From Flavobacterium swingsii (GTDB taxonomy: Bacteria; Bacteroidota; Bacteroidia; Flavobacteriales; Flavobacteriaceae), in assembly GCF_900111965.1 (NCBI RefSeq), contig NZ_FOJT01000004.1, forward strand, positions 372,001 through 436,000: DNA of 64,000 bases. The letters run 5' to 3'. The notes under the pieces are model-generated. The model did no database searches. It had not been told where the DNA came from and saw nothing but the letters and a program-made list of their open reading frames with translations. The translations under genes were made by a program, and so were the position numbers. Positions 6,923 through 64,000 of this stretch are shown here, piece after piece. How positions within the stretch are numbered: the stretch's first letter is position 1; the number at the start of each line of letters is the position of its first letter.

Positions 6923-6948
6923 AAAAATATGATTGTAGTTTCGATTTT

Positions 6949-7095
6949 TAGCCCAGATGGGAATGGAAAGCTTTTTGAGGTCTTGTTGCATTTTTTCTTG
7001 TGAAAAAAGAGCGACGATAGGAGCTCCTTTTTTTGCTTAGAAAAAAGCAAACAAGACAAGAAAACTTGCAATGGACAGCTGGAATGGCTTCTAGT
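6949..7095. repeat. Degenerate copy of the AGCCCCGAT/GGAAATCC intergenic repeat
   Basis: The copy begins TAGCCCAGATGGGAATGG and ends ACAGCTGGAATGGCTTCTA, with an internal hairpin near GAGCTCC. It is related to the copies at 10533, 17602, 24437, 27064 and 50713 but has a longer centre. Its right end overlaps the apaG stop codon. Confidence 0.6.
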
Positions 7096-10478: not shown

Positions 10479-10532
10479 AGAATTTTTATTTGATTGATAG
10501 GAGAAATTTGGATTTTAGAACAATGTGCTTTC

Positions 10533-10636
10533 TAGCCCAGATTGCAACGGAAATCCTTTTGCTTTTTTCTTTAGAAAGCAAAAGATTGAAGAGGAAAGCT
10601 GGAAATAGCTCCTCACTTCGACAAGCTCAGTGTAAG
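10533..10636. repeat. AGCCCCGAT/GGAAATCC repeat plus half CTTCGA element
   Basis: The left half reads TAGCCCAGATTGCAACGG then AAATCCTTTTGC. The right half reads GCAAAAGATTGAAGAGG then AAAGCTGGAAATAGCTCC. CTTTTGC pairs with GCAAAAG across a short TTTTTCTTTAGAAA centre. A half copy of the other repeat (ACTTCGACAAGCTCAGTG) is attached on the right. Confidence 0.75.
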
Positions 10637-13567: not shown

Positions 13568-13620
13568 AAAATCTTTTTATATTATCTTTTTATTGTGGTA
13601 TGCGTATGCTGATCAAGAAT

Positions 13621-14862
13621 TTATTCTTCAAATTCTTCTTTCAATATTCTAACTACTTCAAGAATAGTTTCTTCTTCTAAATCGGTTCTTCTTACTAAGT
13701 CGTTTACATCTTGACTTAGGATGCTTTTTGCTGTATCCAAACCAATTTTCGCAAATTCTTCGATAACCCAAGCTTCGATTTCGTCTGAGAATTCTGTTAA
13801 TTCTACATCATCGTCGGCGGCAACGGTTCCTTCTCTAATTACATCAAGTTCATAGCCAGTTAATTGTCCAGCTAGTTTGATATTGTGTCCTCCACGACCA
13901 ATTGCTTTTGAAACTTCTTCTAATTTCAAGAAAACTTCGGCACGTTTTGTCTCTTCATTAATTTTGATAGAAGATACTTTTGCAGGACTTAACGCTCTTG
14001 TAATATACAATTGTATGTTAGTCGTATAATTGATAACATCGATATTTTCGTTTCCTAATTCGCGAACAATTCCGTGAATACGTGATCCTTTCATTCCGAC
14101 ACAAGCTCCAACTGGATCGATACGATCATCGTAAGAATCGACAGCTACTTTTGCTTTTTCGCCAGGAATACGAACTACGTTTTTCACCATAATTAATCCG
14201 TCGAAAACTTCTGGAATTTCTTGTTCAAATAATTTTTCTAGGAACTTTTCTGAAGTTCTAGACATAATAATTTGTGGTTTGTTTCCTTTTAATTCAACAG
14301 ATTCAATAATTCCACGAACGTTATCTCCTTTACGGAAAAAGTCAGACGGAATTTGTTTTTCTTTTGGCAAGATGATTTCATTTCCTTCGTCGTCTACAAG
14401 AATTACTACTCTTGGACGTACGTGGTGCACTTCTCCTGTATATATATCTCCAATTAAATCTTTAAATTGTTTGTAAAGATTTGTATTGTCATGTTCGTGA
14501 ATTTTTGAAATAAGATTTTGACGCAATGCCAAAATTGCTCTTCTTCCAAGATCGATTAATTTTACTTCTTCAGAAACTTCTTCGCCAATTTCGAAATCGG
14601 GTTCGATTTTTCTTGCATCGGTAAGTGTAATCTCAAGGTGATCTAAATCTAAATCATCATCAGCTACAATTACTCTTCTCTGCCAGATTTCCATATCACC
14701 TTTATCAGGATTGATAATGATATCAAAATTATCGTCTGAACCGTATTTTTTCTTCAATGCGTTTCTAAACACATCTTCCAAAATCGCCATAAGCGTTGGG
14801 CGATCTATCGATTTGTCGTCCTTAAATTCTGAAAATGAATCTATTAATGCTAAATTCTCCAT
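13621..14862 (-). CDS. nusA: Transcription termination/antitermination factor NusA
   Basis: NusA binds RNA polymerase and nascent RNA and modulates pausing, termination and antitermination. The 413-residue protein has the N-terminal polymerase-binding domain, an S1 domain (about 130-195) and two KH domains (about 225-340, including GRGGHNIKLA). It lacks the C-terminal acidic repeats found in E. coli NusA, as is usual in Bacteroidota. The gene lies 15 bp downstream of rimP and 53 bp upstream of infB. Confidence 0.97.
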   Translation of the reverse strand: MENLALIDSFSEFKDDKSIDRPTLMAILEDVFRNALKKKYGSDDNFDIIINPDKGDMEIWQRRVIVADDDLDLDHLEITLTDARKIEPDFEIGEEVSEEVKLIDLGRRAILALRQNLISKIHEHDNTNLYKQFKDLIGDIYTGEVHHVRPRVVILVDDEGNEIILPKEKQIPSDFFRKGDNVRGIIESVELKGNKPQIIMSRTSEKFLEKLFEQEIPEVFDGLIMVKNVVRIPGEKAKVAVDSYDDRIDPVGACVGMKGSRIHGIVRELGNENIDVINYTTNIQLYITRALSPAKVSSIKINEETKRAEVFLKLEEVSKAIGRGGHNIKLAGQLTGYELDVIREGTVAADDDVELTEFSDEIEAWVIEEFAKIGLDTAKSILSQDVNDLVRRTDLEEETILEVVRILKEEFEE

Positions 14863-17601: not shown

Positions 17602-17733
17602 TTAGGAGCGAAAAGCTTGGGCATTTTTGCAAACCCTATTCCTGCTTTTCATTACAATCTTTTTCTTGTTCTCGATACGCTCTTCGAGCTACTCGAACTG
17701 ACGAAAAAGGATTTCCATTTCAATCAGGGCTAT
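17602..17733. repeat. AGCCCCGAT/GGAAATCC intergenic repeat, inverted copy
   Basis: This copy reads from TAGGAGCGAAAAGCTTGGGC through ATTACAATCTTTTTC to AAAAAGGATTTCCATTTC then AATCAGGGCTATTA, the reverse orientation of the copy at 24437. The centre holds an unrelated hairpin, CTCGATACGCTCTTCGAG. With the repeat at 17789 it fills the 343-bp gap before the deaminase gene, in which no other gene is seen. Confidence 0.7.
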
Positions 17734-17788
17734 TAGAGAAACCATTTTAACTTCAGTAAATATTTTTTGAAATAAATAACAACTAATT

Positions 17789-22293: not shown

Positions 22294-22410
22294 ATACTGA
22301 GCGTAGTCGAAGTATGGGCGTGACCCTCGCGGAAAAACTCGGGTCGTGCTATCCGTTACAATCTTTAGCTCGTTCCTCGCAAAAGGATTTCCGCTACTAT
22401 CACTCACGCA
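22294..22410. repeat. Composite intergenic repeat (CTGAGCG half plus GGGCGT...ACGC element)
   Basis: A half element TACTGAGCGTAGTCGAAGTA is followed by GGGCGTGACCC..., GCTATCCGTTACAATCTTT, a variable centre, AAAAGGATTTCCGCTACTAT and CACTCACGC. The same architecture occurs at 38313-38431. It occupies most of the 319-bp space between marC and the DUF3109 gene, which has no other gene. Confidence 0.7.
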
Positions 22411-22560
22411 ATCAACCCGAAAATCAGTATTTAACAATTAGTAAAAATCCGCGTATCTCTGTGTAAACTCCGTGAATCTTTGTGTAATAACCATAATGAA
22501 AAGACTTGCGAAGCAAGTCGACTATTAACAATAAATTTTTGTAACTCAAAAACTTTAAAC

Positions 22561-24368: not shown

Positions 24369-24436
24369 AAAAAAATCAAATACCACTAAATAAATACCAA
24401 AATTTTCAGTAAAGCCCCCAAATCTGAAAATTAGCT

Positions 24437-24525
24437 TAGCCCCGATGGAAGGGAAAATCCTTTTGTCTCGTTTTTTGGAACGAGACAAAAGATTTGGAAT
24501 GACAGCGGGATTAGCTTCCTAAAAT
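24437..24525. repeat. AGCCCCGAT/GGAAATCC intergenic repeat
   Basis: TAGCCCCGATGGAAGGG then AAAATCCTTTTG, a CTCG...CGAG loop region, then CAAAAGATTTGGAATG and ACAGCGGGATTAGCTTCC. CTTTTGTCTCG pairs with CGAGACAAAAG. It separates nrdB from nrdA. Confidence 0.8.
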
Positions 24526-27064: not shown

Positions 27065-27148
27065 AGGAGCTAATCCCGCTTTACGTTGCAATCTTTTCTT
27101 CGGCGAAAAGCCTCAAAAAAGGATTTCCACTGCAATCGGGGCTAAAAA
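27064..27148. repeat. AGCCCCGAT/GGAAATCC intergenic repeat, inverted copy
   Basis: TAGGAGCTAATCCCGCTTTA..., GCAATCTTTTCTTCGGCG, CAAAAAAGGATTTCCACTGC and AATCGGGGCTA are the reverse of the copy at 24437. The two copies bracket nrdA in opposite orientation. Confidence 0.8.
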
Positions 27149-38312: not shown

Positions 38313-38431
38313 TTGGGCGTTACCACAAGGGTCGGGCTATTCGTTACAATCTTTTTTTGGGAGACACGAATGATAGCGAACTGACCAAGAAAAAACCCAA
38401 AAAAAGGATTTTCACTACTATCCCTAACGCA
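38313..38431. repeat. Intergenic repeat, GGGCGT...ACGC subtype
   Basis: GGGCGTTACCACAAGGGTCG, GGCTATTCGTTACAATCTTT, a variable centre, AAAAAGGATTTTCACTACTA and TCCCTAACGC match the copy at 22313-22410 element by element while the centre differs. It lies between the transporter and pyrH. Confidence 0.7.
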
Positions 38432-38500
38432 AAATTCCACACTAAATAGAATTCATCTATAAATAATAAAAACCATTTTTATAAAACGGAAGAATATCTT

Positions 38501-50706: not shown

Positions 50707-50712
50707 AACTTT

Positions 50713-50800
50713 ATAGCCCCGATAGAAGTGGAAATCCTTTTGATTTTTCCTTTAAAAAGCAAAAGATTGTAACGGATAGCGGGAAAAAGCTTCTGAAAAT
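50713..50800. repeat. AGCCCCGAT/GGAAATCC intergenic repeat
   Basis: TAGCCCCGATAGAAGTGG then AAATCCTTTTG, a TTTTTCCTTTAAAAAG centre, then CAAAAGATTGTAACGG and ATAGCGGGAAAAAGCTTC. This is the cleanest copy in the window. Confidence 0.8.
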
Positions 50801-54149: not shown

Positions 54150-54274
54150 AACGTCTTGGCACTACAGCGGGTTTGGGACTAAATTAAGCCCTATCTTCGG
54201 ATTTGCCAAATCATCCCAAATACAAAACCATCTTTCCATTAAGCCCAATGCCCAAATCCGTTGTAGTGGCTGTT
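54150..54274 (-). repeat. attC-like site 1, long type A (125 bp)
   Basis: It starts AAC-GTCTTGG-CACTACAGCGG and ends CCGTTGTAGTG-GCT-GTT. The L-box arms pair (CACTACAGCGG with CCGTTGTAGTG) and the spacer is longer on the left. The loop contains a small hairpin, GATTTG-C-CAAATC. Outside it, the left arm is CACTAAC and the right arm GTTACCTGCAGG. Confidence 0.75.
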
Positions 54275-54292
54275 ACCTGCAGGCTTTTTTAT

Positions 54293-54664
54293 TTATGGTT
54301 TGCTTATTTCTTTTTTGCTGTAATAAATTAAAATATCACTCACAATTTTGTCAAAGTCAGTTTCGTTAAAATATAATTTTGAAAGCTCGATCATTTCGGC
54401 AATTGAACTTCCTGATTCAATTCGCCAAAAATTCACTTCGTCAATTTCATTTCTGTTTTTAGCGTCAATTTTTTCAAGTGTCAAAGGTGAACCAAAATAT
54501 TCTTTTACTTCTTTAATAAAGTCTGTAATTTCATTTAGGTTAAATGTTGGCCAATCATTCATCGCTGTTAAAAACAGTTCGGCAATTTGCTTTATTTTGT
54601 TGCTTGTAGTATGAAGTTCGACCAAATCATAAAGTTCCAAATTTGTCGTGATTTTGTTTTCCAT
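54293..54664 (-). CDS. Cassette protein of unknown function
   Basis: This is a 123-residue, acidic, probably cytoplasmic and helical protein with no family I recognise. An in-frame start further upstream at 54811 would read through two recombination sites; the ATG at 54664 (MENKITTNLELYDL) is preferred because it lies 26 bp inside the cassette's GTT core. The stop is 18 bp from the opposite core. The cassette arms are GTTACCTGCAGGCTT and AAGCTTGCAGGTAAC. Confidence 0.7.
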   Translation of the reverse strand: MENKITTNLELYDLVELHTTSNKIKQIAELFLTAMNDWPTFNLNEITDFIKEVKEYFGSPLTLEKIDAKNRNEIDEVNFWRIESGSSIAEMIELSKLYFNETDFDKIVSDILIYYSKKEISKP

Positions 54665-54689
54665 CGTGATTTCTTTTAAGCTTGCAGGT

Positions 54690-54784
54690 AACGATAGGGG
54701 GATTTGCGAAGGGATTTGCTTTTGCAAATCTCTGGTTGGAGGAAGTCCGTTTTCGGGCTTTCCGACGCAAATCCCCCTATCGTT
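54690..54784 (-). repeat. attC-like site 2, perfect 19-bp ends (95 bp)
   Basis: AACGATAGGGGGATTTGCG at the left end is the exact complement of CGCAAATCCCCCTATCGTT at the right end. Unlike other sites it has no longer left spacer, and its loop contains ATTTGC-TTTT-GCAAAT. The outer arms are TGCAGGTAAC and GTTGGAG. Confidence 0.7.
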
Positions 54785-54812
54785 GGAGGAAAGCCGAAGG
54801 ATTTTCTCCAAC
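54782..54812. mobile_element. Gene-less mini-cassette (31 bp)
   Basis: GTTGGAG and CTCCAAC arms face each other across only 17 bp (54789-54805). There is no reading frame. It is bounded by attC-like sites on both sides and looks like a cassette reduced to its arms. Confidence 0.6.
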
Positions 54813-54938
54813 GTCCCGCCGGCTTTGTCGCCGTTGCGTAAATTTAGCTAAAACTTTCCAAGTACAAAACCCAGATTGGAAAAAACGGAGTTTTTTCCAA
54901 AGGAAGCCCAAGCCTAGCAATGGCACAAAACCGCTGTT
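54810..54938 (-). repeat. attC-like site 3, type B (129 bp)
   Basis: It starts AAC-GTCCCGC-CGGCTTTGTCGCCGTTGC and ends GCAATGGCACAAAACCG-CT-GTT. CGGCTTTGT...C-GTTGC pairs with GCAATG-GCACAAAACCG. As in type A sites, the spacer is longer on the left. The loop includes GTAAATTTAGCTA, shared with site 5. Confidence 0.65.
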
Positions 54939-54951
54939 GTGTGCTGGTTTT

Positions 54952-55617
54952 TTACATGAAATTTTTTTGATAATTCATTAGTATATTATTAAATTCTTCT
55001 TCTTGTTCTAAAGTAAACTTTTTGTTCTCTTTTTCTGCTATTAAAGCAATAACATGGCTAGGTATTACTTCGGTTTTCTTTAATACCATTGAGATTTTTG
55101 CTAATAGAAATAAAATATTTATATCTTTTTCATATAGTAGATTTGCAAAAGAAAGAATTTTATACCCTTCATCTAGATTTCCAATATTGATTTGTTCAGT
55201 TGCATCAAACAAAGCTTTATCACTTGGTTTCATCTCTACTTTTTTGATTTCACTTTTACCAAAAGGTTCGTGTTCTTGAGGAGAAAAGACATTTGCAGAA
55301 ATATCTTTATAATTTTCATTGAAATATAAGATTGTTTTAAATTTTAAATTTTCAAATTTTAGAAAATCAATTTCCCATTTCTCTTTTTGCTTAATGAATT
55401 CATTTAGTTTGTCAAAAAAACCATTTATTGCATATTCTATAACCTCATTGCTTGTGTATGAGAAATGTGTTTTATAACTAAAGAATTTCCATTCCTTGAA
55501 TTCAAATAAATAACTTTTGTTATTAGTTTTATGAATGAAAATATGTAGTAGAGAACTCATTTTTATTTGCCAACTTTCAGAATTGAATTGATTTTTGTCT
55601 GTAATTTTTATTATCAT
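54952..55617 (-). CDS. Cassette protein of unknown function
   Basis: This is a 221-residue, Lys/Glu/Phe-rich cytoplasmic protein. The N-terminal half (1-105) is strand-rich with aromatic residues, the C-terminal half (about 125-221) looks helical and TPR-like. No family is recognised. It lies 24 bp downstream of the transglutaminase-like gene and 13 bp from the GTT core of site 3. A short AACGTTTTTAGTT sequence upstream (55625-55637) could be a collapsed attC, but this is weak. Confidence 0.65.
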   Translation of the reverse strand: MIIKITDKNQFNSESWQIKMSSLLHIFIHKTNNKSYLFEFKEWKFFSYKTHFSYTSNEVIEYAINGFFDKLNEFIKQKEKWEIDFLKFENLKFKTILYFNENYKDISANVFSPQEHEPFGKSEIKKVEMKPSDKALFDATEQINIGNLDEGYKILSFANLLYEKDINILFLLAKISMVLKKTEVIPSHVIALIAEKENKKFTLEQEEEFNNILMNYQKNFM

Positions 55618-55641
55618 TTTTCATAACGTTTTTAGTTAATA

Positions 55642-56808
55642 CTAAATTCTAGAAACCATACTATAAACAGCAACAGTTTCATAACCACCTTTTCTGTATC
55701 GTTTAACACAAATTTGAATTTTCTTTCCTTTTGGTTTGTGTTTTATAGAATATACGCTGTCTTTTTTAGTGAATTTAAGCCATTTGTTATTATCTATCAA
55801 TACTATTTCATGAGCATAAAGGGATTTAATCTGAAAATTTAAAGTGTCTGTTTTAATTAGGTTTTTGGTGTAAGGTAAATTGATGAATTTTAAAGATGGG
55901 TCAGAGGTTGAATATGTTGGGACAAATTTAGTGAAATTGTTGTCTATTGCTTCTTCAAATATTTTGTTTGAATCATAACCAATTTTAAAAAAATCACTCA
56001 TTAACCAGGGCATTGTTTCATATTTTTCTAAAGTAATTAATTTACCTGTTTTTTGCCATTTCTCTTCTTCTGGGAAATGAGAAAAAATAAACTCTTTTGG
56101 ATTTACGTCAAACCAATAGGAATCAAATTTTTTCACAGAAACTAACTTCCCTTTTCTTGTTATCGCGGGTCCTTCACTCCAAGTAACATCGAATAATTTC
56201 CATTTTTTTTCTATTTTAACTGCATTCCAAGCATGGTCAACTTTTTTGAATTTGTCTCCAATTTTATAACCATATCCTTTTGCGTACCCTGTTACTTTTT
56301 CAGCTTCAAGACCAGCTTCAACACACATTGATTTGAATAAACTACTAAAATCATCGCAAACTCCTTTTCTGTATTTTAAAATATTTGCATCTGAATAAGC
56401 TTTATATTTTCCTGTGTTATAAGCATAATCATCATAGTTTATGTTTTTGGTAATCCAAACGAAAATGAGGCGTGTTTTCTCTAAATCAGTTTTGGCCGGA
56501 GCAATTAAATATTGAGTCAATGTTTTAATGTCTTTTTCGTATTCTTTTGGAGTATTTCTTGCGTAGGTGTCAAGAATATAAAATTTGTCTGGTTTTACAA
56601 CTACTGGAATTGTTTTTTTAACTGAAATTGTAGATTTCTTTTTGGGAATAGATTTCTTTTTCGGATTTAAAATTCGGTCAACAACATCACTATTTTTATA
56701 TTCCTGAAAAATTTCAATAGTACTGCTAGAAAAAACATCTTTTGAGTAACTAAAAGTTGAGATTAAAACTAATATTATGGAAAATTTAAATGTTATTAGT
56801 TTACTCAT
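55642..56808 (-). CDS. Secreted transglutaminase-like protein
   Basis: This is a 388-residue exported protein with a signal peptide (1-22). The transglutaminase-like core (about 95-215) has the cysteine in KGVCDDFSSL, the histidine in VDHAWNAV and the aspartate in LFDVTWSEG, so the Cys-His-Asp triad is complete. Members may be peptidases or cross-linking enzymes. The C-terminal 120 residues are strand-rich. It belongs to the multi-gene cassette that runs from 54936 to 57285. The substrate is unknown. Confidence 0.85.
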   Translation of the reverse strand: MSKLITFKFSIILVLISTFSYSKDVFSSSTIEIFQEYKNSDVVDRILNPKKKSIPKKKSTISVKKTIPVVVKPDKFYILDTYARNTPKEYEKDIKTLTQYLIAPAKTDLEKTRLIFVWITKNINYDDYAYNTGKYKAYSDANILKYRKGVCDDFSSLFKSMCVEAGLEAEKVTGYAKGYGYKIGDKFKKVDHAWNAVKIEKKWKLFDVTWSEGPAITRKGKLVSVKKFDSYWFDVNPKEFIFSHFPEEEKWQKTGKLITLEKYETMPWLMSDFFKIGYDSNKIFEEAIDNNFTKFVPTYSTSDPSLKFINLPYTKNLIKTDTLNFQIKSLYAHEIVLIDNNKWLKFTKKDSVYSIKHKPKGKKIQICVKRYRKGGYETVAVYSMVSRI

Positions 56809-56831
56809 AATTAAGAATGTTTAATATTACT

Positions 56832-56840
56832 GTTGTGTGC
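56832..56840 (-). repeat. Extra GTTGTGTGC core copy inside a cassette
   Basis: The same 9-mer as the cassette arm at 54936-54944, and the complement of the arm at 57277-57285. No attC body is attached on the left, where the ATG of the transglutaminase-like gene follows after about 23 bp. It suggests an internal site lost by deletion. Confidence 0.5.
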
Positions 56841-56843
56841 AGA

Positions 56844-57248
56844 TTATTCTTTTAAATCATTACTCATTTCGAACTGAAAAATTACACCTTGCTTTTTTTC
56901 TGCAAGCATGAACATAAATAGGCTGTTTTCCAATTGATTTAATACATAATAATTGACGTTACTACTGTCTTTCATATACCACATTCCATTTGGCTGTTTG
57001 CTAACAAATGATAGCCTTTTTGCTACACGCTCAAATTCATTGGTTGTATATAAGATTTCAATACTTTTCAGAAATTGGTCATAAATAATTTCAACATCTC
57101 TAGCCCATGGTTTTATAAATGAATTACTAGAAGCATCTGTGACCCTGACGTAGCAGTAATTAAAATTATAGGTTTTAATATCCTGTTTTGTTTGTCCTTT
57201 AACGTTGTAACACAGAAAAAGAAAAGTTATCAAAATTATTCTTGTCAT
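56844..57248 (-). CDS. Small secreted cassette protein
   Basis: This is a 134-residue exported protein of unknown function with a signal peptide (MTRIILITFLFLCYNVKGQ). The ATG at 57248 is preferred over the frame beginning at 57284 because the latter starts inside the cassette core and destroys the signal. It lies 35 bp from the cassette core at 57283-57285. A second GTTGTGTGC core copy lies just past its stop (56832). Confidence 0.65.
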   Translation of the reverse strand: MTRIILITFLFLCYNVKGQTKQDIKTYNFNYCYVRVTDASSNSFIKPWARDVEIIYDQFLKSIEILYTTNEFERVAKRLSFVSKQPNGMWYMKDSSNVNYYVLNQLENSLFMFMLAEKKQGVIFQFEMSNDLKE

Positions 57249-57261
57249 ATTTTTACGATTT

Positions 57262-57275
57262 TGTTCGGTTAAACT
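57262..57275 (-). promoter_or_regulatory. Shared leader motif AGTTTnACCGAACA (copy 1)
   Basis: On the minus strand AGTTTAACCGAACA lies at a fixed distance of about 10 bp from the GTT core. The same motif, with one substitution, lies at the same distance in the cassette at 61902-61915. Confidence 0.5.
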
Positions 57276-57282
57276 AGCACAC

Positions 57283-57408
57283 AACGTTCCGCGGCTTGGC
57301 GCAGTAGCGGCTTCGTGAACGATTATTTTCTTGCTAATATAAGATTTTCCAGCGGAAAATCGAACGTGATGCTTATTGTAAATTTAGCTATTGAGCCAAA
57401 CCGTTGTT
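57283..57408 (-). repeat. attC-like site 5, type B (126 bp)
   Basis: It starts AAC-GTTCCGC-GGCTTGGCGCAGTAGC and ends GCTATTGAGCCAAACCG-TT-GTT. The L arms pair with a longer left spacer. GTAAATTTAGCTA at 57378-57390 is shared with site 3. Outer arms are GCACACAAC and GTTAGCGG. Confidence 0.65.
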
Positions 57409-57418
57409 AGCGGTAGTA

Positions 57419-57490
57419 TTATTTGACTCGCTCATATGTTTTTGTTTCATTACCACAAACAGTCTCCCATTCTGAGCCATCTTTAAATTC
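57419..57490 (-). pseudogene. 3' remnant of a cassette gene
   Basis: On the minus strand 23 codons (EFKDGSEWETVCGNETKTYE...RVK stop) are open up to a scar at about 57490, where sequence switches into half an attC-like site; the next codons contain a stop. The 5' part of this gene is gone. The stop lies 11 bp from site 5. Confidence 0.6.
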
Positions 57491-57492
57491 AA

Positions 57493-57523
57493 CCTAATGC
57501 CCAAATCTCGTGTAACGGCTGTT
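57493..57523 (-). repeat. Half attC-like site 6 (right half only)
   Basis: CCTAATGCCCAAATCTCGTG...GGCTGTT matches the right half of type A sites. The left half is missing, fused to the gene remnant, so this site cannot fold normally. Confidence 0.65.
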
Positions 57524-57531
57524 GGCGGTAG

Positions 57532-57930
57532 TTATTTTGTTATTATTTGATCATTTTCCCCACTCCAAGAAAGAATTTTATAATTTACATTTGGCTCTTT
57601 TTCAATTTTTGTTATGTCATTAGTCAAAGTGGTTTCATACCAATTTCCATTCTTATTTGCAATGACCCAAAATATTTCTTCATTAGTAATTTTTTCAATT
57701 AACATTTCAAGTTCATCAATATTATCAACTGAATATGACGAATTTGGAATATGATTTTGAATCCATATTGAATTATCTTCTGTAGTTCTTATTGCAATTC
57801 CGCCAATTTCGGCTGTATTTGAATTTTTACAATGAATCAATAAAAAATCATCATCAGTTTCATCTTCAAAATTCAAACTTGGAAATTTAAGAAGAATCTC
57901 AATATAAATATTTTTTGAAAAATTGTTCAT
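57532..57930 (-). CDS. Cassette protein of unknown function
   Basis: This is a 132-residue, acidic cytoplasmic protein. The sequence alternates short strands with acidic loops, with GNWYETT near 94-100. The general look is that of small immunity-type proteins, but no family is recognised. The ATG lies 27 bp inside the cassette core and the stop 9 bp from the other core. Arms: GTTGGCGGTA (57521) and TACCGCCAAC (57951). Confidence 0.65.
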   Translation of the reverse strand: MNNFSKNIYIEILLKFPSLNFEDETDDDFLLIHCKNSNTAEIGGIAIRTTEDNSIWIQNHIPNSSYSVDNIDELEMLIEKITNEEIFWVIANKNGNWYETTLTNDITKIEKEPNVNYKILSWSGENDQIITK

Positions 57931-57957
57931 TTTTATGTCTGTTGTATAATTACCGCC

Positions 57958-58081
57958 AACGTTCTCGCGCTACAAGCAGTTTGGGATTAAGGAAGCCAAA
58001 TCTTCGGATAAACACAAATCTTCCAAATACAAACCAATTTTTCCATTAAGCCAAATGCCCAAATTGCTTGTAGCGTGTGTT
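57958..58081 (-). repeat. attC-like site 7, type A (124 bp)
   Basis: It starts AAC-GTTCTCG-CGCTACAAGC-AGTTTGGG and ends CCCAAATT-GCTTGTAGCG-TGT-GTT. The 10-bp L box is a perfect match and the spacer is 7 nt on the left and 3 nt on the right. Confidence 0.8.
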
Positions 58082-58102
58082 GGCAGTAGTACCTATCGGT
58101 TT

Positions 58103-59503
58103 CTATTTCAGATAAATTTCATTTTTTACATAAGTATTGTTCAGCCAAAAACAATGTTTAGTGTATTCATTTTGCTTTGTTAATTTGTCTTTTTTCGGCA
58201 GTTCAAAAGTGTCGGAAGAATCTTTTGCGTGAGGACGAACGTGAGAAACAGAACTAAATTTCTTGCTAGGAAAATTCGTGAAACGAATTTCCTTGCCATT
58301 TTTGTTAGTTTTTATTTCTTTTACAATTTCGCCTTTCGCAACAATTTCTTTTGTTTTTGTCCAAACTTTTTCGGCTTCTAATATGTCAAGATATGGCATA
58401 TTCCAAAATTTAACTTTCTTCAAAACAAGTTTTTTGTTTTCGAATTGAAAGAATACAAAAAGGAATTTATGTTCTAAAACATCTTTGAAATCAGATTCTT
58501 CCCAATCTTCATTTACAATTTCTTCGTATTTAAAATTTGGAAATGAAATATCTTCTTTTGGTAAATCATTTTCTTTTAAACGAACTGTTTTTACAATAAT
58601 TTCTGCTTTTTCAAATTCTTCAATTTCTTTATCAAGTTCAATTCCGAGAATTGCTTTTGTTAAATTTGCGTAAAAACTTTTAGCTTTTGTATTGATTTTG
58701 ATTTTCAGAGTTTTTATAATTTCTTCTTCCGTTTTTCCATAAAACGGTTTAAATTTAGAAATTACAATTTCTTCAATGGTTTGTTTTTTAGCAACTTGAA
58801 CGTTTGGAATTAACTTTCCATAAATTTCTTTGCTTTCATTTGCAATCGAGGCAATTATATGATTTACATAACCTTGCTTAAAAGAATAGGCTCTTTGTTT
58901 TGCTGGTATTTCTGAAAAAGGTTGTTTTCTAACCGACAAAGCATTTGCGCCTTTGGTGCAAGCTCCAAGATAAAAAGTGTCGCCTTCTGAAAGTTCGTGT
59001 GCTTTTCCTTCGGCTATTTTCTTTGTGATTAATTCCCAATCTTTCTTGATAATTTCTAAATCTGTGGATGGAAAACTCCATTCATCAACAAGTTTTATCA
59101 AATAGTCCAAAATATCAAAACCCGCTTGGTGTAAATAGAATATCAAAAGAATGCTTGCATTCTTTTTGACAAAATCACTATTTTCAAAATTCTGATTAAC
59201 AACATTAACGTAGTTAATGATGTTTAAAACTAATCGCTCTTTAGAGCGATATTCATTGTTTTTTAATTGTTTTAAAGGTGAAGATTTTAACTCCATTCCA
59301 ATTTGAGCAAAATCTGCTTCTGCTAATGAGTTTGGCTCATATCCAAAATAAAATTTCTCCAAAACTTGTCCAAAGTTTCCCTTTCCTGAATAGGAATGTT
59401 CTAAAATTTTTGCATCACAAACTTGTCTTAAAGATTTTCCTTTTAGTTTTTTTGCATACTCAATTATGGAGTTTTTATCGCTTGGATTATACGGTAACTT
59501 CAT
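58103..59503 (-). CDS. Type II restriction endonuclease, Sau3AI/MutH family
   Basis: This is a 466-residue endonuclease. The first domain has the Sau3AI/MutH pattern GKGNFGQVLEK...FGYEPNS and the catalytic D64...E71-x-K73 (ADFAQIGMELKSSP). The length (about 470-490) and two-domain layout match Sau3AI, which cuts before GATC, so GATC is the likely target. The start overlaps the methyltransferase stop by 17 bp. It is the last gene of the C-M-R operon carried by one cassette. Confidence 0.85.
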   Translation of the reverse strand: MKLPYNPSDKNSIIEYAKKLKGKSLRQVCDAKILEHSYSGKGNFGQVLEKFYFGYEPNSLAEADFAQIGMELKSSPLKQLKNNEYRSKERLVLNIINYVNVVNQNFENSDFVKKNASILLIFYLHQAGFDILDYLIKLVDEWSFPSTDLEIIKKDWELITKKIAEGKAHELSEGDTFYLGACTKGANALSVRKQPFSEIPAKQRAYSFKQGYVNHIIASIANESKEIYGKLIPNVQVAKKQTIEEIVISKFKPFYGKTEEEIIKTLKIKINTKAKSFYANLTKAILGIELDKEIEEFEKAEIIVKTVRLKENDLPKEDISFPNFKYEEIVNEDWEESDFKDVLEHKFLFVFFQFENKKLVLKKVKFWNMPYLDILEAEKVWTKTKEIVAKGEIVKEIKTNKNGKEIRFTNFPSKKFSSVSHVRPHAKDSSDTFELPKKDKLTKQNEYTKHCFWLNNTYVKNEIYLK

Positions 59504-60773
59504 TATTTATTTTTTGGTTTAATGCGACACCTATTTTTTCTATAACTCCAACAACCAATGCGTTACCCATAAAAAAAGCACGTTTTGTGTCTGTTACTCC
59601 GTCAAATTTTGTGTGATTATCTGGAAACATATTTAATCTCTCCAATTCAACTGGCGATAATCTACGGTAACCTTTTTCAACTTTTATAACGTGTTTAAAT
59701 CTAGATGCGGATTTTCCGCCTTCGCCCGTTATTATTGTTCTTGATGGTTTATCTAATGAATCTGGAAAAATCATTCCGCCTTCACTATAATTGTACTCAA
59801 AACCTTGTGCGTTTTTGCGCATTTCCTTTTTTGCACCTTTTAGATAAAACCATTTGTCTAATTCTTCTTCTTTTATGTAGAATTCCTCGGTTACTTCTCC
59901 GTTTTGAATTATGTCTTTTAAGATTGTGAATTTGTCTTCGTAACTTGGTTTTGTTTTGATTGTCGTAACAATTCCATCAATCATTATTCCCGTATTTTCA
60001 AACATTCCTTTTTTGCCGTTTTTGTTGAAATTTTCTGAAATATCAACAATATCTCCTTTGAGTTTAAATTCGTTTGGGAATAAAATATCATCGGATTGAA
60101 CAGGAAAAGCGTTTGCTAAAGTTCCATCTTTTAGAATCCAATCTTTTGAAGTTGTTTCTTTTATTTCGTTATAAATCGTAGAATCTTTTAAATAAGCCAA
60201 AATGAAAATTCTTTTTCTTCGCTGTGGCATTCCATATTCTGATGCGTTTACAACTCGCCATTCAACGGCATAACCCAAGTCGTTTAGACTTTTTAGAATT
60301 ATTGCAAAATCTCTTCCTCGTTGTCCTGATGGCGAAATCAAAAGTCTATCCACGTTTTCAAGAAACAAATATTTTGTTTTGTTTTCTTTTTCGCTCAAAA
60401 TTTTGTGAATGCTCCACCATAAAACGCCTTTTTTTCCAATTAATCCTTTGGAATTTTTTAGCGTTGTCGCAACCGAATAATCTTGGCAAGGAAAACCGCC
60501 AACTAATAAATCGTGATCAGGAATTTCAGTAACTTCTACGGTTGAAATGTCTTGATTGCAATGACTTTTTTTGTCCCAACGAGTTTCATAAACCATTGAT
60601 GCGTGTTGCACTTTGGTTGACGGTTCCCACTGATTACTCCAAACTACTTCGTAAGGACTTTCGAAATTTTCTTTATAATTTGATGATGCAGATTTGTTAT
60701 TCCATCCTTCTAAACCAAGTCTAAAACCACCAACTCCTGCAAACAATTCGACTACTTTTATTTTATTTTCCAT
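59487..60773 (-). CDS. DNA (cytosine-5) methyltransferase
   Basis: This 428-residue m5C methyltransferase protects DNA from the partner endonuclease. The conserved motifs are in standard order: FAGVGGF (11-17), catalytic PCQ (Cys96 in GGFPCQDYS), ENV (139-141), QRRKR (184-188) and the C-terminal GNALVVGV. The target-recognition region lies between about 230 and 350. M.Sau3AI is also a cytosine-5 enzyme, fitting the partner. The start overlaps the regulator gene by 11 bp. Confidence 0.93.
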   Translation of the reverse strand: MENKIKVVELFAGVGGFRLGLEGWNNKSASSNYKENFESPYEVVWSNQWEPSTKVQHASMVYETRWDKKSHCNQDISTVEVTEIPDHDLLVGGFPCQDYSVATTLKNSKGLIGKKGVLWWSIHKILSEKENKTKYLFLENVDRLLISPSGQRGRDFAIILKSLNDLGYAVEWRVVNASEYGMPQRRKRIFILAYLKDSTIYNEIKETTSKDWILKDGTLANAFPVQSDDILFPNEFKLKGDIVDISENFNKNGKKGMFENTGIMIDGIVTTIKTKPSYEDKFTILKDIIQNGEVTEEFYIKEEELDKWFYLKGAKKEMRKNAQGFEYNYSEGGMIFPDSLDKPSRTIITGEGGKSASRFKHVIKVEKGYRRLSPVELERLNMFPDNHTKFDGVTDTKRAFFMGNALVVGVIEKIGVALNQKINNEVTV

Positions 60774-61071
60774 TGTGAATAGTTTTTAGGTATAATGCTT
60801 TTTCTTCGGCTACTTTTAGAACTTCTCCAATATTTTCTTCATAGAGAATTGTATTAGCGATTTGATCGCTTAACCAACTTGTGATTAATTTATTTTTGTC
60901 TAAATCGTAAAATTCAGCAAATTTTTCAACTTGTTCTTTTGTTGGTTTTCTTTCTCCACGCTCAAATTTGCTTATAATCGCTTGATCAATTTCGAGTGCA
61001 GAAGCAACTTGTCTTAATAAAAGACCTTTGCTTTCTCTTTCAGTTTTTATAATATCTCCAAATGTTTCCAT
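60763..61071 (-). CDS. XRE-family HTH regulator of the R-M system
   Basis: This is a 102-residue helix-turn-helix protein. The HTH (about 8-62) has the LLLRQVASALEIDQAIISKFERGERKP pattern of XRE/Cro proteins (shortened here). It lies upstream of, and overlaps, the methyltransferase gene, the position of controller (C) proteins that time expression of restriction relative to methylation. The C-terminal 40 residues are helical. There are 112 bp between its ATG and the cassette core, room for a promoter and operator. Confidence 0.85.
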   Translation of the reverse strand: METFGDIIKTERESKGLLLRQVASALEIDQAIISKFERGERKPTKEQVEKFAEFYDLDKNKLITSWLSDQIANTILYEENIGEVLKVAEEKALYLKTIHNGK

Positions 61072-61183
61072 AAGACAAAATTTGTTTTGACAAAAATAGT
61101 CAAATTAATTTTAGAAACAATTTTTCAAGGATTTATTTTTTCAGATTTCTCGTTTTCTGCAGATTTTTGGGGGTATTACTGCC

Positions 61184-61308
61184 AACGTTCTGGTACTACA
61201 GCGGGTTTGGGACTAAATTAAGCCCATTCTTCGGATTTGCCAAATCATCCCAAATACAAAACCAACTCTCCATTAAGCCAATTGTCCAAATCCGTTGTAG
61301 TAGCTGTT
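61184..61308 (-). repeat. attC-like site 8, type A (125 bp)
   Basis: It starts AAC-GTTCTGG-TACTACAGCGG and ends CCGTTGTAGTA-GCT-GTT. Outer arms are TACTGCCAAC and GTTAGGCG. The loop carries GATTTG-C-CAAATC. Confidence 0.8.
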
Positions 61309-61324
61309 AGGCGTTCGGTTTTTA

Positions 61325-61864
61325 TTAATCATTATCTAAGAATAATTTCCAGTATTCAATATCCATCCAATTATTATCATTTTTAGTTTTATTTAAAAAC
61401 AATTCTAATTCAGTTTCTGAAATCGGATTTTTCTCTATTTTAACTGGATTTTGTCTGTTGATTGATAAAATCTTTAAATCGTTTAAGATTGATGAAAATT
61501 TTTCAATTGAAATTGCAATGTAATTTTCTTCCCATTGCCCATTATCGTGTTCAGAAATAAAAACTGGCAAGTTTGGATTTTTAATATCGACAAATATTGG
61601 GTCATCCATATTATCTGTTGCAATTACAATCCAATTCTTTTTCCAATCTCCATTACTATTTCCGACTAGCGATTTTCCATTTTCTGTTACGCTGTATCCA
61701 ATTTGTTCTTTTTCAATATTTTCTAATTTGAATATATTTATTTCGCTATAGCCAATTGAGACATCTTCTGCTTTTGAAATGAATTTTTTGAAATTTTCAT
61801 TCTCGAACAATACATTTAAATTTGGCTTTTCGTTGCTATTAAATAGTTTACTGAAAATATTCAT
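61325..61864 (-). CDS. Probable SUKH/SMI1-KNR4-fold cassette protein
   Basis: This is a 179-residue acidic cytoplasmic protein. The segment at about 57-123 (IVIATDNMDDPIFVDIKN, PVFISEHDNGQWEENYIA) resembles the conserved core of SUKH/SMI1-KNR4 proteins, many of which are immunity proteins in toxin systems. No toxin gene is adjacent. The stop lies 16 bp from site 8. Assignment is by pattern only. Confidence 0.5.
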   Translation of the reverse strand: MNIFSKLFNSNEKPNLNVLFENENFKKFISKAEDVSIGYSEINIFKLENIEKEQIGYSVTENGKSLVGNSNGDWKKNWIVIATDNMDDPIFVDIKNPNLPVFISEHDNGQWEENYIAISIEKFSSILNDLKILSINRQNPVKIEKNPISETELELFLNKTKNDNNWMDIEYWKLFLDND

Positions 61865-61901
61865 TTATTTTTCGTTTAAAATCAACATTCTTATTGCATT
61901 C

Positions 61902-61915
61902 TGTTCGGTCAAACT
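61902..61915 (-). promoter_or_regulatory. Shared leader motif AGTTTnACCGAACA (copy 2)
   Basis: On the minus strand AGTTTGACCGAACA lies about 10 bp inside the GTT core, as in the cassette at 57262-57275. The genes of the two cassettes are unrelated. Confidence 0.5.
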
Positions 61916-61922
61916 GACGCCT

Positions 61923-61993
61923 AACAGGCGGGCGCTTGACGAAGTCGCTTGAGATTTTTTCAAGCGTCGAGTTAGGCGAAGTGCCCGCCTGTT
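61923..61993 (-). repeat. attC-like site 9, short type (71 bp)
   Basis: AACAGGCGGGC and GCCCGCCTGTT are perfect complements at the ends. The loop has a further hairpin (CGCTTGA...TCAAGCG). Outer arms are CGCCTAAC and GTTAGG. Confidence 0.7.
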
Positions 61994-62024
61994 AGGTGAA
62001 ATGCTTTCGGGCATTTTGCCTAAC
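61991..62024. mobile_element. Gene-less mini-cassette (34 bp)
   Basis: GTTAGGTGAAATGC and GCATTTTGCCTAAC pair over 14 bp (two wobbles) around TTTCGG. It is bounded by attC-like sites and contains no gene. Confidence 0.6.
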
Positions 62025-62145
62025 GTTCCCGCGCTACAAGTAGTTTGGGACTAAATTAAGCCCATTCTTCGGATTTGCCAAATCTTCCAAATACAAAACC
62101 ATTTTTCCATTAAGCCTAATACCCAAATTGCTTGTAGCGTGTGTT
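62022..62145 (-). repeat. attC-like site 10, type A (124 bp)
   Basis: It starts AAC-GTTCCCG-CGCTACAAG-TAGTTTGGG and ends CCCAAATTG-CTTGTAGCG-TGT-GTT. The L box pairs with 7 nt of left spacer and 3 nt of right spacer. The right core GTTAGGC fits the classical GTTRRRY consensus. Confidence 0.8.
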
Positions 62146-62154
62146 AGGCGATGT

Positions 62155-62775
62155 TTATTCGGTTCTAGTATTTGTAACTTCTCTATAAAATTTATCAAAA
62201 GATTTAGATTTAGTTCTGGATATATTTGGATCTATATTTTTATAAATTTTGACCCTATTTCTTCTGTTTTTTATATCTATATCCGATTTTAGTTTTGAAT
62301 GAAGCCATTGACTAGGATTAGGTATTTCTATATCAACATTTTCAAACTCCTCGACCAAAAGTACAGAATTAAAATTTTCATTATTTCTTAAGGAGATTAT
62401 ATCTGCACATATCCAACTTTCAAAAGTTCTATCAGCAATAACAACTACAATGCTCTCAGGCAGAATTAAACTTCCATTTTGTTGTGATTTAATAAAATCG
62501 TTGCAGTTTTGTGTTACAATTTCTTTTAGTTCAACACAATTATTAACCAATCCTTCTCGTAAAGCATCTCTATAATCTAGACTGATTACAATCTTTTTTG
62601 GAGCATAGAGTTTAATTATAGATAATAATTCTTCATGCGTATTTTTCATTATATTGCCAATTCCTCCAGCATTTACGATAGGCACGTAATATGGTGTATT
62701 TGGTATTTTTGATAATATAGAAGGGAATGAATCATATTCACAATGACCCTCAACAATGAGTCCTAAATCTACCAT
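62155..62775 (-). CDS. TOPRIM-like (DUF4276-type) protein, partner of an ATPase
   Basis: This 206-residue protein has a TOPRIM-style layout: LIVEGHCEYDSF with E9 and G10 near the start, SLDYRD near 66-70 (D67, D70), and a DRTFESWICAD motif (115-125) typical of DUF4276 proteins. It lies 3 bp downstream of an ABC-like ATPase gene, in the arrangement of two-gene defence systems that pair an ATPase with a TOPRIM effector. The nuclease activity is inferred only. The stop is 9 bp from site 10. Confidence 0.65.
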   Translation of the reverse strand: MVDLGLIVEGHCEYDSFPSILSKIPNTPYYVPIVNAGGIGNIMKNTHEELLSIIKLYAPKKIVISLDYRDALREGLVNNCVELKEIVTQNCNDFIKSQQNGSLILPESIVVVIADRTFESWICADIISLRNNENFNSVLLVEEFENVDIEIPNPSQWLHSKLKSDIDIKNRRNRVKIYKNIDPNISRTKSKSFDKFYREVTNTRTE

Positions 62776-62778
62776 ATC

Positions 62779-64000
62779 TTATATTGATTTAGGCACGCCA
62801 TTTAATAATCCTTTTGTCCAAAGGCTACCAATCTCTCCCATTGTAATATTTTCTTGACGAACAATGTCTTTTATTTTGTTATAATGAGTTCCTGTTTCAT
62901 CTCTTTCAGTAATTAATAATTCGTTTGGTTTTAGACATTCTAAAACTTGTTGTGAATGAGTTGTCAATATAACCTGAATATTCTTTTGTTCAATTGTACC
63001 TCTGATATGTTGCATCAAATCTTTTACCGCCCATGGATGTAAACCATGCTCTGGTTCTTCAATTAAAATGGTTGAGCCTTCATCATGTGATTCTAAACAT
63101 AATAAAATAGCTAAAGCTCTTAAAGTTCCATCAGATGCTTCCCAAGATTCTATAGGTCTTCCATCAAATATTTCTTCAAATACTAAATATTCTTTACCAG
63201 CCCTTAATGTTTCTGAATATACTTTGGTGAAATATGGAGAAATGTTACACATTGTATCAATGATTCTATTCCATGCAATCTTATTATCTTTTACAAACTT
63301 TTTAACAACGTTTGGAATATTATCTCCAGAAGTACTAACCTTATTTGTATTTGAAATACTTTGCTCTTGTCTTAATTCATTGATAAATAAATCATATCTC
63401 GATATTGATTTCATATCTTTAACTAATTTATTTAAATGTTGGCTAAAGTTTATTAAATGTCTATCAGTCGATAGTAAAGATGTCTGTTCTTGATGGTTTC
63501 TTATATTGCCTATTATGTTATCTATTAAGGTATCTACTTTTTTTATATTGATATCCTCAGAAAAAATCCCCCTTAAACCAATCCAATTAAGTAAAAGCCT
63601 TAAATTATCGGAATTTAATTCAAAATTTGTTTGGTATTTGAATTTATCTCTTGAATTTCTATAAAAACAAATAGAAGAATCTTTATAAGTGAGAAGAGTT
63701 TCTTCGTTAAGTTCTTCTTTTTCCTTGTTTTTAGAACTACTAATATTGCTATTATGCTCTAAATGATATGCTAATAAAAATACAGAATTTAAACTTAATT
63801 TTTCTTGACTTATTTTTATATTATTACCCCTTAATTTTTTAACAGTGATAGAATATTCTGCTATTAAGTTGCCATATTCAGTTGGCCATTTTTTTGGAGG
63901 GTTAATTTTAAATTCTAAATTTAATTTTATTTCCTTGCCTTTTAAATCTTTATATTGTTTTGGTAAAATTTCATCAAAGCCTCCTCTATTATAAATAGCA
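62779..64000 (-). CDS. AAA/ABC-like ATPase, partial (N-terminus beyond the window)
   Basis: The minus-strand frame is open without a stop from the window edge to 62779, giving at least 406 residues; an internal ATG at 63414 is therefore not the start. The visible part begins AIYNRGGFDEILP and ends with an SDGT signature (in WEASDGTLRAL), Walker B TILIEEPEHGLHP and the switch histidine ILTTHSQQ. This is the AAA_15/AAA_21 group related to OLD and SMC ATPases. The Walker A motif must be beyond 64000. It forms one unit with the TOPRIM-like gene. Confidence 0.85.
   Translation of the reverse strand, partial: AIYNRGGFDEILPKQYKDLKGKEIKLNLEFKINPPKKWPTEYGNLIAEYSITVKKLRGNNIKISQEKLSLNSVFLLAYHLEHNSNISSSKNKEKEELNEETLLTYKDSSICFYRNSRDKFKYQTNFELNSDNLRLLLNWIGLRGIFSEDINIKKVDTLIDNIIGNIRNHQEQTSLLSTDRHLINFSQHLNKLVKDMKSISRYDLFINELRQEQSISNTNKVSTSGDNIPNVVKKFVKDNKIAWNRIIDTMCNISPYFTKVYSETLRAGKEYLVFEEIFDGRPIESWEASDGTLRALAILLCLESHDEGSTILIEEPEHGLHPWAVKDLMQHIRGTIEQKNIQVILTTHSQQVLECLKPNELLITERDETGTHYNKIKDIVRQENITMGEIGSLWTKGLLNGVPKSI

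What the first reader, a model, noticed from the sequence alone, without database searches (positions are those of the whole stretch)
54150..64000. Integron-like gene-cassette array in a Flavobacterium-type genome
All genes in this 10-kb stretch are on one strand, and each is closely bracketed by palindromic sites running from AAC to GTT. Ten such sites or site parts are present. Stop codons lie 9-21 bp from the next site. The contents are unrelated genes, including defence functions. This is the layout of integron cassettes, but the sites do not follow the classical core consensus GTTRRRY in most cases (cores are GTTACCT, GTTGGAG, GTTGTGT, GTTAGCG, GTTGGCG, GTTGGCA, GTTAGGC, GTTAGGT). Integron systems in Bacteroidota are poorly known.
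Basis: partly seen in the sequence, partly recalled or inferred. Interest (0 to 1): 0.95.

Follow-up and report, generated by a model that had tools for sequence, protein, structure and literature searches.

The report
Bacteroidota integrons run by another recombinase
A Flavobacterium-like genome carries a row of gene cassettes, most of them closed by a DNA site that is predicted to fold into a hairpin, and the row likely starts beside a recombinase gene that lacks the hallmark domain of integron integrases; relatives of this recombinase sit beside arrays of the same kind of site in many other Bacteroidota, and they likely capture genes much as integrons do, with different parts.

Summary
The window's array runs into a contig end; exact 95-bp overlaps likely link it to a 16-kb contig that is all cassettes and to a tyrosine recombinase gene beside gpmI (about 28.3 kb, 28 long sites). 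Behind the recombinase lies an attI-like site; against F. psychrophilum the DNA matches up to its GTT and stops. Each cassette has private inverted ends: in 102 of 132 relatives' cassettes they pair over 15 nt, with a mismatch at position 11 (0 of 102 pair there; first-end base A in 102 of 102). The bottom strand folds better in 100 of 102. This is integron logic, but the recombinase is not IntI: below every curated cut-off, without the IntI domain (61 of 61), a clade of its own. It or distant relatives occur in 163 of 296 genomes of its class; true IntI in 1 of 73 sampled. A shorter relative sits beside divergent arrays with the same end code. I read it as a new variant of the integron kind. 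Against: 48 of 67 Flavobacterium genomes without a recombinase hit still have sites, and recombination was not tested. Ten literature searches listed no description; most subscription journals and preprints are not held.

The parts
54150..54274 (-). last attC-like site of the array (far end, next to rpoN)
   Evidence: R1 132.3 bits
54293..54811 (-). cassette ORF, no Pfam family (true start unclear)
54690..54784 (.). second-type site: perfect 19-bp palindrome arms
54782..54812 (.). tiny hairpin of the 120-bp mini-cassette; the unit occurs at three places of the array
54810..54938 (-). attC-like site
   Evidence: R1 62.5 bits
54952..55617 (-). cassette ORF, no Pfam family
55642..56808 (-). cassette ORF, transglutaminase-like
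   Evidence: PF01841 60.5 bits
56844..57284 (-). cassette ORF, no Pfam family
57283..57408 (-). attC-like site
   Evidence: R1 83 bits
57404..57520 (-). truncated site or cassette remnant
   Evidence: sequence reading, not scored
57532..57930 (-). cassette ORF, no Pfam family
57958..58081 (-). attC-like site of the restriction-modification cassette
   Evidence: R1 122.1 bits
58103..59503 (-). MutH-family restriction endonuclease
   Evidence: PF02976, REase_II
59487..60773 (-). cytosine-5 DNA methyltransferase
   Evidence: PF00145, MTase_II
60763..61071 (-). HTH regulator of the same cassette
   Evidence: PF01381
61184..61308 (-). attC-like site
   Evidence: R1 127 bits
61325..61864 (-). SMI1/KNR4-like cassette ORF (below Pfam cut-off)
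61923..61993 (.). second-type palindrome site
61991..62024 (.). tiny hairpin cassette
62022..62145 (-). attC-like site
   Evidence: R1 129.9 bits
62155..62775 (-). HEC-01B-like candidate defence gene (DUF4276, below Pfam cut-off)
62779..64000 (-). HEC-01A-like AAA ATPase, runs past the window to C7:436161

Best explanation
This is an array of gene cassettes that likely belongs to an integron-like gene-capture platform driven by a tyrosine recombinase that lacks the IntI-specific domain. Shown: cassettes in one direction; each begins at GTT and most end in a long imperfect palindrome. In the relatives fetched, a homologous recombinase gene is followed by such sites, with an attI-like site between; in the one pair aligned its conservation stops at GTT. 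In the window's genome the recombinase sits at the end of another contig; its link to the window array, through the 16-kb contig C3, is inferred from exact 95-bp overlaps. In most cassettes the two ends pair with each other over 15 nt, with position 11 never paired. Inferred: a free cassette circle folds on its bottom strand into a hairpin whose stem is completed only when the two ends of the same cassette are joined. The recombinase joins it to attI at G^TT, and later cassettes push earlier ones along. Predicted only: in the array the stem base mixes two cassettes and folds about 8.8 kcal/mol less stably, so integration should be favoured over excision.
For: Recombinase with PF13495 and PF00589 at C10:586369-587409. 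Contig overlaps C10-C3-C7 of 95 bp each; 28 sites over 28.3 kb. Own-cassette ends match 6.0 of 7 on average in 28 cassettes against 2.87 for shuffled pairing, reached by 0 of 2000 shuffles. In 38 relative loci 102 of 132 cassettes match at 6 or 7 of 7 (mean 5.71 against 2.83 shuffled); in these 102, positions 12-15, not used for the selection, pair in 86-94, position 11 in 0. From attI to the first site 26 of 36 match. Bottom strand more stable in 100 of 102, 29 of 30 loci; a 4-nt one-sided bulge beside the crossover in 94 of 102. Of 154 R1 hits in relatives (164 less 10 own) 150 are co-directional with and downstream of the recombinase (the 14 weakest by eye). Contigs end within 2.5 kb on the array side in 46 of 81 loci, on the other side in 6, as repeats would cause. 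Conservation with F. psychrophilum (79.7% over 1155 bp) ends within 3 nt of the attI G. A 120-bp mini-cassette sits at three array positions and a 585-bp unit occurs twice. The restriction-modification genes of one cassette (83 and 89% identical for the two enzymes) also lie between sites in another species' array.
Against: No recombination was observed. 30 of 132 relative cassettes do not match at their ends; some may span missed sites, which I did not resolve. 48 of 67 genomes of the genus without a recombinase hit (E<=1e-70) still carry sites, and 10 of 44 hits in this genome lie outside any cluster. One recombinase locus (L241) has no site within the 20 kb fetched. The attI motif was not found in 7 of 79 loci, and its palindromic arm in only 36. 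The loci were fetched by the recombinase, so they cannot show how often sites occur without it. The array join rests on contig overlaps, not on reads. The shared restriction-modification cassette does not align to its ends and has different end codes in the two species. Own-end pairing of 9-11 nt is already known from classical cassettes, so pairing alone does not set this system apart.
Confidence: 0.85

Rival explanations
1. A classical integron or CALIN of the IntI family whose sites have merely drifted.
For: GTT core, bottom-strand hairpin and cassette-own end pairing are shared; canonical cassettes pair 9-11 nt (PMC2727003, passages), and IntI loci of this phylum show similar pairing. NCBI's best-matching family is named 'site-specific tyrosine recombinase/integron integrase' and is missed by only 2.3 bits.
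Against: No protein of this genome passes TIGR02249. The IntI insert is absent in 61 of 61 family members and present in 7 of 7 IntI aligned. Separate clades, 100/99 and 100/100 (their mutual order is open). R1 gives no hit in 11 IntI loci.
Confidence: 0.06
2. Inert palindromic repeats (REP- or terminator-like) scattered between genes of a genomic island; the recombinase is unrelated.
For: 10 of 44 hits lie outside clusters and 48 of 67 genomes of the genus have sites without a recombinase hit.
Against: Private end pairing with a fixed mismatch, one orientation, position downstream of the recombinase in 150 of 154 hits of relatives, attI boundary.
Confidence: 0.04
3. Host XerC/XerD moves the modules, as with pdif modules, and the extra recombinase is incidental or only controls them.
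For: A XerD over its cut-off and a XerC-like protein below its own are present.
Against: Sites are about 125-nt imperfect palindromes with private ends, not short dif-like sites (dif and pdif recalled, not compared here). Sites lie beside the dedicated recombinase; but the loci were fetched by it, so this is not an independent test.
Confidence: 0.05

Closest known systems
Classical integrons (IntI, attI, attC cassettes)
   Same: Recombinase plus adjacent attI-like site, same-direction cassettes, GTT junction, predicted bottom-strand hairpin, cassette-own end pairing, variable content including defence-type genes
   Different: Recombinase lacks the IntI domain; ends pair over 15 nt with a fixed mismatch at 11 instead of 9-11 consecutive nt; R box not RRRY; a one-sided 4-nt bulge (predicted) in place of the two-sided central spacer; array downstream of and co-directional with the recombinase in the main family
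XerA / archaeal Xer recombinases (4a8e, 5hxy; NF040815)
   Different: Extra N-terminal domain of about 60 residues in the main family; below NF040815 cut-off by 2.3 bits; linked to cassette arrays
Integron integrase of PDB 2a3v (molecule name IntI4; I recall it as VchIntIA)
   Different: 58 IntI residues (185-242) face 16 query residues (254-269)

Membership tests
Classical integron | Integrase with IntI-specific additional domain, over TIGR02249 cut-off | tested here: not met
   205.3 bits against 265; 13 residues between two conserved positions in 61 of 61, insert seen in 7 of 7 IntI aligned
Classical integron | attI site next to the integrase where cassettes begin | tested here: met
   Motif in 72 of 79 loci; conservation stops at GTT in the one pair aligned; 26 of 36 first cassettes match. 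Sequence level only.
Classical integron | attC cores RYYYAAC and GTTRRRY | tested here: not met
   GTT is nearly invariant and A or G follows in 101 of 102; positions 5-10 and 12-15 are cassette-private
Classical integron | Site folds preferentially on the bottom strand | tested here: met
   100 of 102 in silico
Classical integron | Extrahelical bases on the R''-L'' arm | tested here: inconclusive
   Predicted folds show a 4-nt bulge on the other arm (94 of 102) and a 1x1 mismatch (80 of 102) instead
Classical integron | Cassettes with genes in one direction, site 3' of the gene | tested here: met
Classical integron | Integrase catalyses attI x attC recombination | not testable with these tools
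   no experiment
XerA/XerC/XerD | Passes the family's curated cut-off | tested here: not met
   NF040815 217.7/220, XerC 183.9/335.15, XerD 181.5/329.6
HARP-like N-terminal domain (hint) | Significant fold or sequence match to the HARP domain | tested here: inconclusive
   4o66 ranks first but E 0.48, TM 0.36; no significant Pfam or PDB sequence match

The most novel reading that the evidence does not exclude
A second kind of integron dominates Bacteroidia: a non-IntI recombinase captures cassettes through folded single strands. Each cassette carries a private 15-nt pairing key with an obligatory flaw at position 11, so a hairpin is complete only in the free circle. That makes capture easy and loss hard. 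An N-terminal domain (perhaps HARP-like, reading DNA structure) takes over part of the work of the missing IntI domain.
Probability: 0.35. Interest if true: 0.95.

Novelty: new variant of a known kind. Interest (0 to 1): 0.9.

Why it matters
Integrons are defined, and found by software, through IntI and classical attC (PMC9668308, PMC9024848, passages). In complete genomes Bacteroidetes looked almost empty by that definition: only In0 at first, then one complete integron in Salinibacter (PMC9024848, passage). True IntI does occur in the wider phylum (85 of 296 genomes), but hardly in the window's class (1 of 73). In that class a different recombinase family, with arrays of predicted hairpin sites, is common. 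If it works as inferred, cassette capture is a main route of gene flow there, the IntI domain gains a natural comparison for what it does, and arrays now filed as hypothetical islands or viral contigs could be read as cassette stores.

Tried and rejected
Direct join of C10 to C7 through their 585-bp overlap: rejected after one search showed that the 585 bp are a two-copy unit and that contig C3 fits between by 95-bp overlaps; site coordinates from the first join stand. Canonical site search by RYYYAAC...GTTRRRY plus L-box in IntI loci (ended in a script error) found too few sites; replaced by end-pairing scans. The chain method is noisy (it selects on the first 7 nt) and I use it only for the dip at position 11: 32 of 175 against 87-99 of 175 at positions 8-10 and 12-15 in the new family; IntI loci show a gradual fall instead. 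A first attI pattern found too few sites and was replaced; G057's attI still seems set wrongly there. HARP-like reading of the N-terminus: my guess from memory; Foldseek put it first but not significantly. Plasmid search with contig C3: no match. Absences seen: no site behind rpoN in F. psychrophilum, whose flank there differs; none of 32 own-array ORFs in the four F. psychrophilum stretches searched, out of a genome with 64 R1 hits. Eight rows from contigs that look identical were dropped before the pairing count (79 of 87 used). PMC4792948 could not be searched and was not read.
Full report
Where it lies. The window is G000:C7:372001-436000 and the contig ends 1,658 bases later. The array continues to that end. 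The right end of contig C10 carries gpmI, then a 347-aa tyrosine recombinase, then a 110-aa ORF and two sites. I first joined C10 to C7 by an exact 585-bp overlap. Contig C3 (15,927 bases) corrected this: C10 overlaps C3 by 95 bp and C3 overlaps C7 by 95 bp, so the 585-bp unit is a repeat with two identical copies. The order recombinase - attI - C3 - window - rpoN is inferred from these overlaps. It spans 28.3 kb with 28 long sites.

The sites. Nine sites align over about 125 nt; RNAalifold finds an 18-pair stem with compensatory changes in 14 pairs. The model R1 gives 44 hits in the genome. By my count of that list, 29 rows are in the main array, of which one is the cut copy of a site counted already, 5 form a cluster at C10:219-226 kb, and 10 are solitary.

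Private ends. For each cassette I compared its first bases (from GTT) with the bases before the AAC of its own site. In this array they match at 6.0 of 7 positions (4-10) on average. Bases on the two sides of the same site match at 2.63, shuffled pairing gives 2.87, and 0 of 2000 shuffles reach the observed value. Four cassettes that match poorly contain a mini-cassette or tiny hairpin in front; behind it the best GTT within 260 nt matches their own end at 10, 10, 10 and 11 of 12. In 38 relative loci 102 of 132 cassettes match at 6 or 7 of 7. In these 102, which lie in 30 loci, positions 1-9 pair in 99-102, position 10 in 73, position 11 in 0, positions 12-15 in 86-94, and from 16 on it falls to 11-23. 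Positions 4-10 were selected on; 11-15 were not. At position 11 the first end has A in 102 of 102, with C (88), G (12) or A (2) opposite. Canonical cassettes are known to pair 9-11 consecutive nt (PMC2727003, passages), and IntI loci of this phylum show the like. The longer key and the fixed flaw are what differs.

Folding. With DNA parameters, the site in circle form is more stable on the bottom strand in 100 of 102 cases (mean 4.4 kcal/mol; 29 of 30 loci) and 8.8 kcal/mol more stable than the array form of the same strand. The predicted bottom strand has a one-sided 4-nt bulge right beside the crossover in 94 of 102 and then a 1x1 mismatch in 80. The rows were selected for end pairing, so circle against array leans that way by construction; the strand comparison does not.

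attI. Behind the recombinase stop, 72 of 79 loci (own included) have a TATA...(AG or ACG)TT motif, with a palindromic arm directly before it in 36. The arm letters differ between species while the layout stays (my reading). Against F. psychrophilum at the same gpmI locus, 79.7% identity over 1155 bp from the recombinase start ends within 3 nt of the attI G, and the first cassettes differ. Elsewhere the gene upstream of the recombinase varies: gpmI only in F. psychrophilum among the loci searched, largest shared cluster 4 of 67 loci. So the platform sits at different chromosomal places.

The recombinase. Pfam gives PF13495 and PF00589, with a weaker PF02899 overlapping the former; residues 1-70 are unassigned. 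It scores 217.7 for NF040815 (cut-off 220) and 205.3 for TIGR02249 (265). Against 2a3v, 58 IntI residues face 16. All 61 aligned family members have 13 residues where IntI carries the insert. The tree of 47 rows, 21 of them from the family, gives one clade for the family (100/99) and one for IntI (100/100); their mutual order is open. The AlphaFold2 model (pLDDT 84.4) matches XerA and IntI folds. The N-terminal domain (pLDDT 81) has no significant match; the HARP domain of SMARCAL1 ranks first with E 0.48. A protein search returned 7998 relatives at E<=1e-40 among the 8000 candidates scored.

Distribution. At E<=1e-40 the recombinase or relatives near 40% identity occur in 163 of 296 genomes of the window's class. 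True IntI over cut-off occurs in 85 of 296 genomes of the phylum, but by my count in 1 of the 73 rows of the window's class (mostly the best 7 candidates per genome were scored). Contigs end within 2.5 kb of the recombinase in 46 of 81 loci on the array side and in 6 on the other side, as repeats would cause. Of the 154 R1 hits in relatives 150 are co-directional with and downstream of the recombinase: 138 of the 140 best by script, 12 of the 14 weakest by eye; the exceptions are in L014, L016, L021 and L071. In the genus, 54 of 121 genomes have it (E<=1e-70) and 101 of 121 have sites: 53 of 54 with, 48 of 67 without it (Fisher p 4.5e-5; counts typed from the tables). Arrays without a detected recombinase are thus common, as CALINs are for IntI.

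A second layout. In IMG/VR contigs 168 relatives were found; among the 80 kept the highest identity is 47%. R1 over these 80 gave 87 hits, all on the strand opposite to the recombinase, 85 of them upstream of it by my count. Sixteen recombinases examined have no IntI insert, and 14 of them, at 262-286 aa, are too short for the N-terminal domain. Of 44 bounded cassettes 18 match at their ends (mean 4.45 against 3.37 shuffled), position 11 in 0 of 18, A in 18 of 18. So the same end code exists in a divergent layout like that of class 1 integrons (layout of class 1 recalled). Two loci of the genus with 42-44% relatives are co-directional (L242, L243), and a third, L241, shows no site near it.

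Content and mobility. Cassettes carry a restriction-modification system, a HEC-01A/B pair, a TIR-SIR2 protein, an Abi_alpha protein and many unknowns. A 120-bp mini-cassette sits at three places. Two DUF3137-like ORFs (one scanned, below cut-off) look like near copies. The restriction-modification genes recur in G057's array between sites, 82% identical DNA over 2.86 kb, with other end codes and no alignment at the cassette ends. Of 32 own-array ORFs this was the only clear case of a defence cassette shared with the relatives fetched; weaker or short matches were a HEAT-repeat protein and a 61-aa ORF.

Literature. Ten searches listed nothing on such a system. I read passages of PMC8138268, PMC8618304, PMC9668308, PMC9024848, PMC2426708, PMC2727003 and PMC8400371; for the rest I saw listings only. 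PMC8618304 lists Bacteroidota among phyla with integrons. The library lacks preprints and most subscription journals, so prior description cannot be excluded.

Noticed in passing
window 50711-50790, 27068-27147, 10530-10609, 17634-17735, 38326-38435, 24434-24516, 6946-7089, 22338-22414: Eight Flavo-1 RNA copies above the Rfam gathering score in 64 kb.
   Followed up: no
L143-L222 (IMG/VR contigs): Contigs filed as viral carry cassette arrays beside a short recombinase; they may be host arrays mistaken for viruses, or phages with arrays.
   Followed up: partly
L137 (G000:C3) 12460-13818: Cassette-borne TIR-SIR2 protein with ThsA/ThsB-like matches.
   Followed up: partly
window 54690-54812 and two further places in the array on contig C3: Gene-less 120-bp mini-cassette with a perfect palindrome site of another type, three copies in the array.
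   Followed up: partly
genomes outside the window's class: True IntI genes are frequent in other classes of the phylum; 85 of 296 genomes pass the cut-off.
   Followed up: no
L011-L090, between recombinase stop and first GTT: attI arms are palindromes whose letters change between species while the layout stays; what reads them is unknown.
   Followed up: partly
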